In this document: piece by piece, positions 1 through 14,243 of the stretch | Numbering within the stretch: the first letter of the stretch is position 1 | Layout: every line of letters starts with the position of its first letter | Origin: Thermoplasmata archaeon | GTDB taxonomy: Archaea; Thermoplasmatota; Thermoplasmata; Lutacidiplasmatales; UBA184 | Length of the DNA stretch: 34,939 nt | Reading direction: 5' to 3' | Assembly (NCBI GenBank): GCA_021806135.1 | Contig: JAJZYB010000019.1 | Coordinates: 1 to 34,939 of the forward strand | Program-made: the position numbers and the translations under genes | The notes under the pieces: model-generated | Database searches by the model: none | What the model was told of the DNA's origin: nothing | The model's input: only the letters and a program-made list of their open reading frames with translations

Positions 1-36
1 TATGCGAGGAAGAAGATGGAGGAGGTACGAGCATGA
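1..36 (+). pseudogene. C-terminal tail of an unknown upstream gene, possibly an IS607-type serine recombinase
   Basis: Only the last 11 codons are inside the window, reading YARKKMEEVRA and then TGA. The stop overlaps the ATG at 33 as ATGA, the translational coupling typical of tnpA-tnpB pairs in IS607 elements. The basic, helical tail fits the end of a serine recombinase, but 11 residues cannot establish a family. The assignment rests mainly on the TnpB remnant that follows. It is cut by the window edge, so whether the rest is intact is unknown. Confidence 0.3.
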
Positions 37-417
37 GCGGAGCGAACACGACGAACGAGCGTCTCCCTCCCCACACCCCTCCCACCCTCCTTACCCTAGG
101 TGTGCAGTTTGAGGGGGTACACGTCAGCGTGGGCGTACCGCGATTGGTTGAACCGGATAGAATGGGCCTGCGAAGCGAACCGTGTTCGCTTCGAGCGTGT
201 GCCTCCGGCCTACACCAGTCAACGGTGCCACGCATGCGGCCATACCGAGAGGGGGAACCGGAAAGGGGAGGTATTCTGTTGTCGGGCGTGTGGTCACACC
301 GACAACGCGGACGTCAATGCCGCAAAGAACCTCCTGGTACGGTTCTGGGGCCAAGAGCCCCACCCCACCCGAGCCTACGGTCCGGGTTTCCAAGGAGGAG
401 GTCATGAAACGCTATGA
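33..417 (+). pseudogene. tnpB: Internally deleted TnpB remnant
   Basis: The C-terminal part, in the frame of 100-417, is clearly TnpB: an SAWAYRDWLNRIEW helix, then PPAYTSQRC, a four-Cys zinc ribbon (CHAC and CRAC pairs) and NADVNAAKNLL with the last RuvC acidic residue. RuvC I, RuvC II and the whole N-terminal domain are absent. An ATG at 33 follows a GGAGGT and overlaps the previous stop, so 33 to about 105 probably encodes the original TnpB N-terminus (MSGANTTNERL...) in another frame. An internal deletion of roughly 250-300 codons with a frame change would join the two pieces. No nuclease activity is expected. The C-terminal identity is sure; the N-terminal assignment is inference. Confidence 0.75.
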
Positions 418-12532: not shown

Positions 12533-12610
12533 TGCCAGTAATTATTTCCGTGTATCTAAACGTAGGGCTCGGGGAACGGCGGTTCCGCTGACGACGGCGG
12601 CGAGCGCAAG

Positions 12611-12630
12611 CCCCCCTACTTGTAGGGGGG
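12611..12630. repeat. Left-end palindrome of the TnpB element
   Basis: CCCCCCTAC (12611-12619) and GTAGGGGGG (12622-12630) are perfect inverted copies around TT, preceded by AAG. The right-end hairpin has the same nine-base arms, the same ACTTGT core and the same AAG prefix but different arm bases, so the shape rather than the sequence is conserved. Such sub-terminal hairpins are what Y1 TnpA recognises in IS200/IS605 elements. Confidence 0.75.
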
Positions 12631-12640
12631 TTAGCGAGCC

Positions 12641-12647
12641 ATTTATG
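12641..12647 (+). promoter_or_regulatory. TATA-like element before tnpB
   Basis: ATTTATG stands out in GC-rich sequence. Its centre is 40 bases before the ATG at 12684, allowing a leader of roughly 14 bases, and only 16 before the ATG at 12660, which would be too close. It therefore supports 12684 as the start. Confidence 0.45.
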
Positions 12648-12683
12648 CGGGATAGTTCCATGCCCTCCTTGCTACCGTCGAGG

Positions 12684-13916
12684 ATGTATCAGCCCAACAA
12701 GTATCGCCTCTACCCGTTCCCGAACCATGAGCGGGAACTCCTCGCCCAGATGGGCGAACTCCGATTCCTGTGGAACCACGCCCTCGAACAACGACAGGAG
12801 GCGTGGCGGAAGGAGAGGAAGTCCCATTCCTACGTCAGCCAGTGTCGGGACCTCACGCGGTGGCGGGCCTACGACAAGGGTGGCATCGGTCGAGTCTACG
12901 GTCACGTGGCTCAGGAGATGCTCGCCCGCCTCGACGACGGGTTCAAGCATTTCTTCCGGCGCGTGAAAGAGGGCGGCCGGCCCGGGTTCCCCCGGTTCAA
13001 GAGGGAGGTCACATCGCTAACCTACCCAGACTCGAACGGTTCCGCCGCCATCGTCCGTGGGCGGAACGGCACGCACCGCCTTCATCTATCGATGATCGGG
13101 GATGTTCCCATCAAGGTTCACCGTGCCCCGCCCGATGGCCGCATCAAGACCTGCACGGTGGAGCGCGAGGGCGACCGATGGTTCGCCGTCCTCACCTACG
13201 AGGTCGCCGACCCCGCGCTACCTGCTCCCACGGCGTCCGAGAGCCCGGTCGGCGTGGACCTCGGCCTCTCCCACCTCGCCATGTTGTCGACGGGGGAGAC
13301 GGTCGAGCCGCCGAAGTTCCTCCGCGCCTCCGAACTGCGCTTGGCCCGCGCCCAGCGGACCGTCTCCCGGAGGAAGAAAGGCTCCCACAACCGGGAGAAG
13401 GCGAAACTCCGTGTATCCCGGTGCCACGCGAAGGTGCGGGACCAGCGGAGGGACTTCGCCCACAAGCTCACGACCGGGTGGGCGAGGCGCCACGACCTGA
13501 TCGCGTTCGAGGATCTGTCGGTTCCGGAGATGCTCGGAAACCACCACCTCTCCAAGTCGATCTCCGACGCGGGATGGGGGATGCTCCGGCAGATGGCGGC
13601 GTACAAGGAGGCCCGGCGGTCGGGGCGCTACGTCGAGGTTCCCGCGAAAGGAACGACCCAGACATGCTCGAAGTGCGGACGCCTCGCCGATCCCCCGCTC
13701 CCGCTCCACGACCGGACGTACTCGTGTCCGTGCGGTCTTCGCCTCGACCGAGACCTGAACGCGGCGAGGAACGTCCTCGCCCGCGCGCTCGCCAAGATAC
13801 CCGGGGGCACCGGGGAATCCACGCCTGTGGAGACCAGACCTCCACCGCACCGCAAGGGGCGGCGAGTCCGGTCGTCGAAGCAGGAACCACTCTCGGATTC
13901 GGCGGTAGCACGATGA
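12684..13916 (+). CDS. tnpB: TnpB, RNA-guided RuvC-like nuclease of an IS605-group element
   Basis: 410 residues from the ATG at 12684. Earlier in-frame ATGs at 12645 and 12660 exist, but TnpB proteins normally begin close to the YKYRLYP-like stretch (here NKYRLYPFPNHE), and the TATA element at 12641-12647 lies 40 bases upstream. The RuvC acidic residues are all present: D192 (VGVDLGLSH), E276 (IAFEDLSV) and D357 (DRDLNAARN). A zinc ribbon has C328/C331 and C348/C350; the second pair is CxC instead of the usual CxxC. Length is typical, so the protein may be active. Its guide RNA would come from the 3' part of the gene and the right end. Confidence 0.95.
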   Translation: MYQPNKYRLYPFPNHERELLAQMGELRFLWNHALEQRQEAWRKERKSHSYVSQCRDLTRWRAYDKGGIGRVYGHVAQEMLARLDDGFKHFFRRVKEGGRPGFPRFKREVTSLTYPDSNGSAAIVRGRNGTHRLHLSMIGDVPIKVHRAPPDGRIKTCTVEREGDRWFAVLTYEVADPALPAPTASESPVGVDLGLSHLAMLSTGETVEPPKFLRASELRLARAQRTVSRRKKGSHNREKAKLRVSRCHAKVRDQRRDFAHKLTTGWARRHDLIAFEDLSVPEMLGNHHLSKSISDAGWGMLRQMAAYKEARRSGRYVEVPAKGTTQTCSKCGRLADPPLPLHDRTYSCPCGLRLDRDLNAARNVLARALAKIPGGTGESTPVETRPPPHRKGRRVRSSKQEPLSDSAVAR

Positions 13917-13949
13917 GTCCCGAGGGAAGCCCCCGAACTTGTTCGGGGG
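13800..13949 (+). ncRNA. Probable TnpB guide (omega/re) RNA region
   Basis: By analogy with IS605-family TnpB systems, the guide RNA overlaps the 3' end of tnpB and runs to the right end of the element, with the guide in the flanking DNA beyond. Here this stretch ends with the right-end hairpin (13930-13949). Structure upstream of the hairpin cannot be established by eye; the limits are approximate. Confidence 0.4.
13930..13949. repeat. Right-end palindrome of the TnpB element
   Basis: CCCCCGAAC (13930-13938) and GTTCGGGGG (13941-13949) are perfect inverted copies around TT, preceded by AAG and followed by AGGATGTCAC. It is the counterpart of 12611-12630. The element end, and so the point where a TnpB guide would begin, should lie within a few bases downstream, near TCAC at 13955-13958. 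Confidence 0.75.
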
Positions 13950-13952
13950 AGG

Positions 13953-14243
13953 ATGTCACATGCCCGACCCGGAACCCCCAGGGGTGGCCGCCGACGGGCC
14001 GTCCACGAGCCGAGCCCGCCGCCCCCCCGGCGCTGGAAGGCGATCCGGGAGGCGAAGGAAGAGGGCCTCTCCATCCTCGGTACCGTGCCCGGTGGTTCGA
14101 GCGGGCCCTCTCCGGTAGCTCTCCCCCTCCATCGGTCTCCCTTGGCGGGGGGCAGAGCCCCGCCGACCAAGCACTTAGCTCCCGACGGGGCGCGTCCACC
14201 TCGACCGCCCGGGGGACGGGCGTCCTACGGGAGCTCCTCATGA
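13953..14243 (+). pseudogene. Possible gene remnant beside the TnpB element
   Basis: The frame that starts at ATG 13953 contains, at about 14025-14100, a stretch with strong third-position G/C bias and protein-like content: RRWKAIREAKEEGLSILGTVPGG. Sequence on both sides in that frame looks non-coding. A different frame from ATG 13960 gives a plausible N-terminus (MPDPEPPGVAADGPSTSR) that runs into the same C tract. A frameshift in the run of seven C near 14023 would join them. This may be a gene broken by the insertion, or a chance open frame; no family is recognised. Confidence 0.25.

What the first reader, a model, noticed from the sequence alone, without database searches (positions are those of the whole stretch)
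12590..13960. TnpB-only element whose two end palindromes conserve shape but not arm sequence
Left (12611-12630) and right (13930-13949) palindromes both have nine-base arms, an ACTTGT core and an AAG prefix, but the arms are CCCCCCTAC/GTAGGGGGG versus CCCCCGAAC/GTTCGGGGG. Paired changes keep both perfectly complementary. This indicates selection on structure, either for a Y1 transposase supplied in trans or for the guide RNA scaffold. The TnpB has all RuvC residues and may be active. Its zinc ribbon has an uncommon CxC second pair.
Basis: partly seen in the sequence, partly recalled or inferred. Interest (0 to 1): 0.6.

Follow-up and report, generated by a model that had tools for sequence, protein, structure and literature searches.

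The report
Archaeal TnpB-only jumping gene, hairpin ends
This is an archaeal jumping gene carrying only a guide-RNA-directed DNA cutter (TnpB); its two end hairpins keep their shape through paired mutations because the transposase that moves it, and at one end also the guide RNA, needs that shape. It is an ordinary but unusually clear member of the IS200/IS605 family.

Summary
About 25 copies or end fragments in related Thermoplasmata genomes, plus empty sites, fix the element: TGAC target (12589-12592), element 12593-13959, no target duplication. Both hairpins occur in nearly every copy whose ends could be read. Their arms change by compensation (LE: 17 double-sided cells against 5.2 in shuffles; RE: 22 against 3.7; 0/500 shuffles reach either). 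The tetranucleotides 5' of each hairpin (LE CAAG, RE GAAG) pair with the cleavage sites (TGAC, TCAC) by the code solved for IS608. A variant GAAT/TCAA pair has changed on both sides together. So LE and RE are Y1-transposase ends. The last 120 nt of tnpB show 0.91-0.93 synonymous-codon identity, against about 0.4-0.78 elsewhere. With the RE they form a covarying fold resembling the ISDra2 omegaRNA, so the RE hairpin serves both transposition and guide RNA; the LE hairpin serves transposition only. TnpB is under purifying selection (dN/dS 0.17-0.28), RuvC D/E/D present. The CxC zinc pair is common in this TnpB clade. The host's only tnpA is truncated; relatives carry tnpA in a separate IS605-type element. 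Verdict: a real tnpB-only (IS1341-group) element; new member of a known kind.

The parts
12589..12592 (+). TGAC: insertion target / left cleavage site (CL), retained in the left flank; predicted TnpB TAM
   Evidence: TGAC precedes the element in 17 of 19 LE copies at the expected position, in L066 shifted by 2, TGGC in L069; empty sites and restored reading frames end at TGAC
12593..13959 (+). tnpB-only IS200/IS605 (IS1341-group) element, 1367 bp
   Evidence: copies in relatives share sequence between these ends; syntenic site in same-genus genome G011 lacks it
12607..12610 (+). left guide tetranucleotide CAAG, pairs with TGAC by the IS608 rule
   Evidence: invariant in all 19 LE copies
12611..12630 (+). 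LE subterminal hairpin (Y1 TnpA recognition hairpin)
12684..13916 (+). tnpB, 410 aa, RNA-guided nuclease; RuvC D (GVDLG), E (FEDLS), D (LDRDLNAA); zinc ribbon CxxC...CxC
   Evidence: Pfam OrfB_IS605 and Cas12f1-like_TNB, NCBIfam guided_TnpB, aligned to ISDra2 TnpB 8h1j, dN/dS 0.17-0.28
13794..13959 (+). predicted omegaRNA (reRNA) scaffold overlapping the 3' end of tnpB and the RE; 5' limit approximate
   Evidence: synonymous-codon identity 0.91-0.93 at 13794-13913; conserved fold with covariation
13861..13869 (+). 5' half of closing/pseudoknot-like helix (GGC, GTCC) pairing with 13951-13957 (GGATGTC)
   Evidence: 97.4% of cells paired across 22 sequences, little variation
13890..13926 (+). omegaRNA internal stem-loop with compensatory changes
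   Evidence: 10 pairs, 4 with double-sided changes
13926..13929 (+). right guide tetranucleotide GAAG, pairs with TCAC by the IS608 rule
   Evidence: covaries as GAAT/TCAA in L088 and L090
13930..13949 (+). RE hairpin: TnpA hairpin on DNA and last stem of the omegaRNA scaffold
13956..13959 (+). TCAC: right cleavage site (CR), right end of the element
13960..13975 (+). predicted guide segment of the omegaRNA (host flank), matching the empty donor site next to TGAC
   Evidence: inferred from ISDra2 architecture (PMC8612924)

Best explanation
The feature is a tnpB-only IS200/IS605 element (IS1341 group). A Y1 HUH transposase supplied in trans recognises the two top-strand hairpins on single-stranded DNA. 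It positions the cleavage sites by pairing CAAG with TGAC at the left and GAAG with TCAC at the right, then excises and inserts the element 3' to TGAC. The arm sequence is free as long as the stem forms, so LE and RE drift by compensatory change. The RE hairpin is also the terminal stem of the omegaRNA transcribed from the 3' end of tnpB. That RNA guides TnpB to cut the TGAC-flanked donor site left empty by excision, so that the element is restored by repair. Shown here: ends, target, empty sites, covariation, guide/cleavage pairing, overlapping conserved RNA, purifying selection on TnpB. Inferred: TnpA binding, RNA expression, TnpB cleavage, TAM = TGAC, and homing.
For: Multiple copies with the same boundaries. 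Precise empty sites: the L070 locus is continuous in G040 and G037 (TGAC and TTAC at the junction), and joining L066 flanks restores a GNAT frame (LNVTDGNARAERLYRSMGF) and L071 flanks a start at ATGACG. Same-genus G011 lacks the element at the syntenic site. Compensatory change in LE and RE, with slid controls far lower. IS608 pairing rule met, counting a wobble in three copies, in 21 of 23 RE; in 18 of 19 LE at the standard position and in the 19th with a 2-base shift. Held-out copies L123 and L124 also have perfect RE hairpins with GAAG/TCAC. Three 97%-identical copies in G043 at unrelated sites show past mobility. Synonymous constraint over the last 120 nt of tnpB and covarying fold. TnpB family and ISDra2 alignment.
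Against: No intact tnpA in this 94%-complete genome: the only Y1 gene (C44:43378-43695) lacks the N-terminal part and its LE-like hairpin has a mismatch. G061 has three copies but no tnpA hit. The G043 TnpA has HUH changed to YVH. No copy of the element was seen to contain tnpA, so which tnpA serves it is unproven. No expression data exist.
Confidence: 0.93

Rival explanations
1. The hairpins are conserved only as RNA structure: the RE as guide-RNA stem and the LE as a 5' leader or regulatory hairpin of tnpB mRNA. Transposition plays no present part.
For: RE lies in a covarying RNA fold; LE lies 53 nt upstream of the tnpB start; no intact tnpA in this genome.
Against: LE and RE both carry a guide tetranucleotide that pairs with a cleavage site by the DNA-DNA rule of IS608, including a matched change GAAT/TCAA. 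The LE cleavage partner TGAC lies outside the element in host DNA. Near-identical copies at different sites in G043.
Confidence: 0.04
2. Domesticated or dead remnant: the element stopped moving long ago and the palindromes are inherited relics without present selection. (Overlaps with the best explanation, which concerns how the ends work and why they were kept; this one concerns the present state in this host.)
For: Single full-length copy in this genome, with only a 548-bp deletion derivative and a solo LE besides; truncated tnpA.
Against: Window hairpins are both perfect, its guide/cleavage pairs intact, TnpB complete with dN/dS 0.17-0.28 against relatives. This shows selection in the lineage, not necessarily now.
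Confidence: 0.2
3. Chance palindromes or transcription terminators unrelated to a mobile element.
For: GC-rich inverted repeats are common in this genome.
Against: Same hairpins at the ends of unrelated insertions in many genomes, compensatory changes, no T-run after either hairpin.
Confidence: 0.01

Closest known systems
IS1341-group (tnpB-only) elements of the IS200/IS605 family
   Same: Only tnpB between hairpin ends, 1252-1393 bp for the shorter members (PMC9956272); this one is 1367 bp
   Different: Archaeal (Thermoplasmata), TGAC target, omegaRNA not matched by any Rfam family; here ends, target and empty sites are resolved
ISDra2 (Deinococcus radiodurans) TnpB and reRNA
   Same: TnpB alignable over 20-383 with D191/E278/D361 equivalents; scaffold from the tnpB 3' end plus RE; 3'-terminal bases pair about 100 nt upstream (-5..-3 with -99..-97 here; -5..-3 with -105..-103 in ISDra2, PMC10097598)
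   Different: No tnpA in the element; target TGAC instead of TTGAT; CxC instead of CxxC in the second zinc pair
IS608 (Helicobacter pylori)
   Same: Hairpin 3' of a guide tetranucleotide that pairs with the cleavage site by the same rule (GL AAAG/CL TTAC, GR GAAT/CR TCAA; PMC5934647); 14-nt spacer here against 15
   Different: Guide/cleavage pairs CAAG/TGAC and GAAG/TCAC; transposase not encoded
IS605-type tnpA+tnpB element of the same archaeal family (G030, G043, G101)
   Same: Similar LE hairpin CCCCCCAACTTGTTGGGGGG; guide/cleavage pairs fit the same rule (GAGA/TCAT, CAAG/TGAC)
   Different: Carries tnpA and a much more distant tnpB (about 26-29% identity)

Membership tests
IS200/IS605 family (IS1341 group) | tnpB of the OrfB_IS605 / guided TnpB type | tested here: met
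IS200/IS605 family (IS1341 group) | no tnpA inside the element | tested here: met
   the element holds only tnpB as a recognisable gene; the only Y1 gene in the genome is on contig C44
IS200/IS605 family (IS1341 group) | subterminal hairpins at both ends on one strand | tested here: met
IS200/IS605 family (IS1341 group) | insertion 3' of a short specific target without duplication | tested here: met
   TGAC; empty sites, copies
IS200/IS605 family (IS1341 group) | guide tetranucleotides pairing with both cleavage sites | tested here: met
   with the code from PMC5934647
IS200/IS605 family (IS1341 group) | mobilised by a Y1 HUH transposase | not testable with these tools
   intact HUH TnpA in G101 and G030; no binding or transposition data
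TnpB/omegaRNA (OMEGA) RNA-guided nucleases | RuvC D, E, D residues | tested here: met
   alignment with 8h1j
TnpB/omegaRNA (OMEGA) RNA-guided nucleases | structured RNA from the tnpB 3' end and RE | tested here: met
   by conservation only; expression not tested
TnpB/omegaRNA (OMEGA) RNA-guided nucleases | four-cysteine zinc ribbon in TNB | tested here: met
   four cysteines, second pair CxC, shared by the clade
TnpB/omegaRNA (OMEGA) RNA-guided nucleases | TAM-dependent RNA-guided cleavage | not testable with these tools
   TAM TGAC is a prediction

The most novel reading that the evidence does not exclude
In this archaeal family the same DNA guide/cleavage pairing is reused in exchanged roles: CAAG/TGAC is the left pair in the tnpB-only element and the right pair in the IS605-type tnpA element. 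Since TnpB reads the left cleavage site as TAM, the transposition code, the TAM and the omegaRNA scaffold may co-evolve, tied together through one RE hairpin. TnpB-less derivatives that keep the omegaRNA (C63) may supply guide RNAs to the full copy.
Probability: 0.12. Interest if true: 0.5.

Novelty: new member of a known kind. Interest (0 to 1): 0.33.

Why it matters
The element separates two constraints on IS200/IS605 ends that are usually confounded. The LE hairpin covaries without any guide-RNA role, and the RE hairpin covaries under both roles. A natural, matched change of guide and cleavage site (GAAG/TCAC to GAAT/TCAA) is evolutionary support for the IS608 pairing code in archaea. The family gives a compact TnpB with a predicted TGAC TAM and a well-resolved predicted omegaRNA that could be tested directly.

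Tried and rejected
Rfam: no omegaRNA family match, only a sub-threshold HgcC hit, judged chance. The 12645 start codon was rejected for 12684. TCAC as left target of the IS605-type element was first considered, then replaced by TCAT, which fits the guide GAGA and a 15-nt spacer. L097 was first read as an RE of this family; it is the LE of a deleted IS605-type element. A second target for the window guide in its own genome: the best matches outside the element have 2 mismatches to TAM plus 12 nt and no TGAC (TCAC or TGGC), and control counts are of the same order, so nothing convincing. A terminator reading was rejected. The co-occurrence of tnpA and tnpB-only ends (4 of 8 tnpA genomes among 13 with element ends, hypergeometric P = 0.008) is suggestive but not corrected for phylogeny or incomplete genomes. 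Similar TnpBs on plasmids are all below 60% identity, so no close relative was found there.

Full report
What was checked. Both palindromes exist at 12611-12630 and 13930-13949 with perfect nine-base arms and a two-base loop. The window is contig C5 of a 1.85-Mb genome, 94% complete. Relatives found with the same TnpB are labelled Thermoplasmata archaea, and one is labelled only 'bacterium'.

Ends of the element. A DNA search of 103 genomes of the same family gave many copies whose similarity begins at window 12589 and stops at about 13959. Stacking them shows random host sequence up to TGAC, then a conserved LE, and a conserved RE ending GGATGTCAC, then random host sequence. Empty sites confirm the exact junction. 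The G061 copy L070 sits in a gene whose homologues in G040 and G037 run through the site without interruption (TGAC in G040, TTAC in G037). Removing the element from L066 restores a GNAT motif, LNVTDGNARAERLYRSMGF. Removing it from L071 restores a start codon, ATGACG, and a protein beginning MTPFECVPNFSEGRD. For the window copy itself, genome G011 of the same genus has the same two neighbouring genes and no element between them, although the intergenic DNA is too diverged to place the junction to the base. The element is therefore 12593-13959, inserted 3' of TGAC, without target duplication.

Covariation. Seventeen aligned LE copies pair in 96.7% of cells. Six of nine pairs show double-sided changes and 17 cells are compensated, against 5.2 expected in shuffles (0/500 reach it), and slid structures score far lower. 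Twenty-two RE copies pair in 96.0%, again with six pairs changed on both sides and 22 compensated cells against 3.7 (0/500). Examples: CCACCGAAC/GTTCGGTGG, CCCACGAAT/ATTCGTGGG, CCCCCCGTT/AACGGGGGG, CCCAGGATT/AATCCTGGG. Relatedness inflates such counts, but the number of different pair types and the slide controls make the structure secure. Two further copies not used in the alignments, L123 and L124, have perfect RE hairpins too; the L123 LE is not recognisable and the L124 LE carries an insertion in the hairpin. In G043, three copies that are 97% identical show the process under way: TAC/GTT mismatches in two copies and an AAC/GTT stem in the third.

Why the structure is kept. In IS608, TnpA does not read the cleavage sites directly; a guide tetranucleotide 5' of each hairpin pairs with them (PMC5934647). 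The same rule was tested here: guide base 1 with cleavage base 2, 2 with 1, 4 with 4. At the LE the guide CAAG is invariant in 19 of 19 copies. TGAC is at the standard place in 17, TGGC in L069 keeps the three pairs, and L066 has TGAC shifted by 2 bases. At the RE, 18 of 23 copies have a full match, three have GGAG/TCAC with one wobble, and L069 and the highly diverged L086 fail one pair. Sixteen of the full matches are GAAG/TCAC; L088 and L090, from one genome, carry GAAT/TCAA, a matched change on both partners. This is the signature of Y1 single-strand transposition. It applies to the LE, which is not in the guide RNA.

The guide RNA. Synonymous-codon identity among copies rises to 0.91-0.93 over the last 120 nt of tnpB (13794-13913), against about 0.4-0.78 before. 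The region folds with the RE into one structure: a closing helix pairing 13861-13869 with 13951-13957, a short stem, a covarying stem-loop (13890-13926) and the RE hairpin; 11 pairs have double-sided changes and 41 cells are compensated against 10.9 expected. Pairing of the 3' end about 100 nt upstream resembles the pseudoknot of the ISDra2 omegaRNA (PMC10097598). Expression was not tested, and the closing helix itself hardly varies, so it is supported by conservation, not covariation.

TnpB. It matches OrfB_IS605 and the TNB domain, the NCBIfam guided_TnpB model and ISDra2 TnpB, with the RuvC aspartate, glutamate and aspartate in place. dN/dS against relatives is 0.17-0.28. The CxC second zinc pair recurs in many TnpBs of these genomes, while other TnpBs in the same genome have CxxC.

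Transposase. The only Y1 gene in this genome lacks the N-terminal part. Relatives G030, G043 and G101 carry tnpA in an IS605-type element with a similar LE hairpin and the same pairing rule. HUH is intact in G030 and G101 and is YVH in G043. Thus trans-mobilisation is the best explanation of past movement; present movement in this organism is doubtful unless an intact tnpA lies in the missing sequence.

Verdict.

Noticed in passing
L009 511-1062 (G000:C63:5110-5661): A 548-bp internal-deletion derivative of the same element in the same genome that has lost most of tnpB but keeps both ends and the whole omegaRNA scaffold.
   Followed up: partly
G000:C44:43378-43695 (L011, L016): The only Y1 tnpA of the genome; N-terminal strand missing, LE-like hairpin beside it with one mismatched pair.
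   Followed up: yes
L097 about 1044-1458 (G000:C59): MITE-like deletion derivative of the separate IS605-type element, with LE and RE hairpins and the last stretch of its tnpB.
   Followed up: partly
L105, L106, L107: In the IS605-type element the tnpA reading frame runs through the LE hairpin, so the hairpin encodes the TnpA C-terminus (ASSPQQVGGSPPA).
   Followed up: no
window 1-333: 3' part of another, unrelated TnpB (zinc ribbon CxxC...CxxC) at the contig edge, similar to the one on C47.
   Followed up: no
L010 182-240 (G000:C13): Solo LE, 93% identical to the window LE, followed near the contig edge by what looks like the end of another transposase gene.
   Followed up: partly
G104 (same order): 28 TnpB matches in one genome of a sister family, several broken by stop codons.
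   Followed up: no
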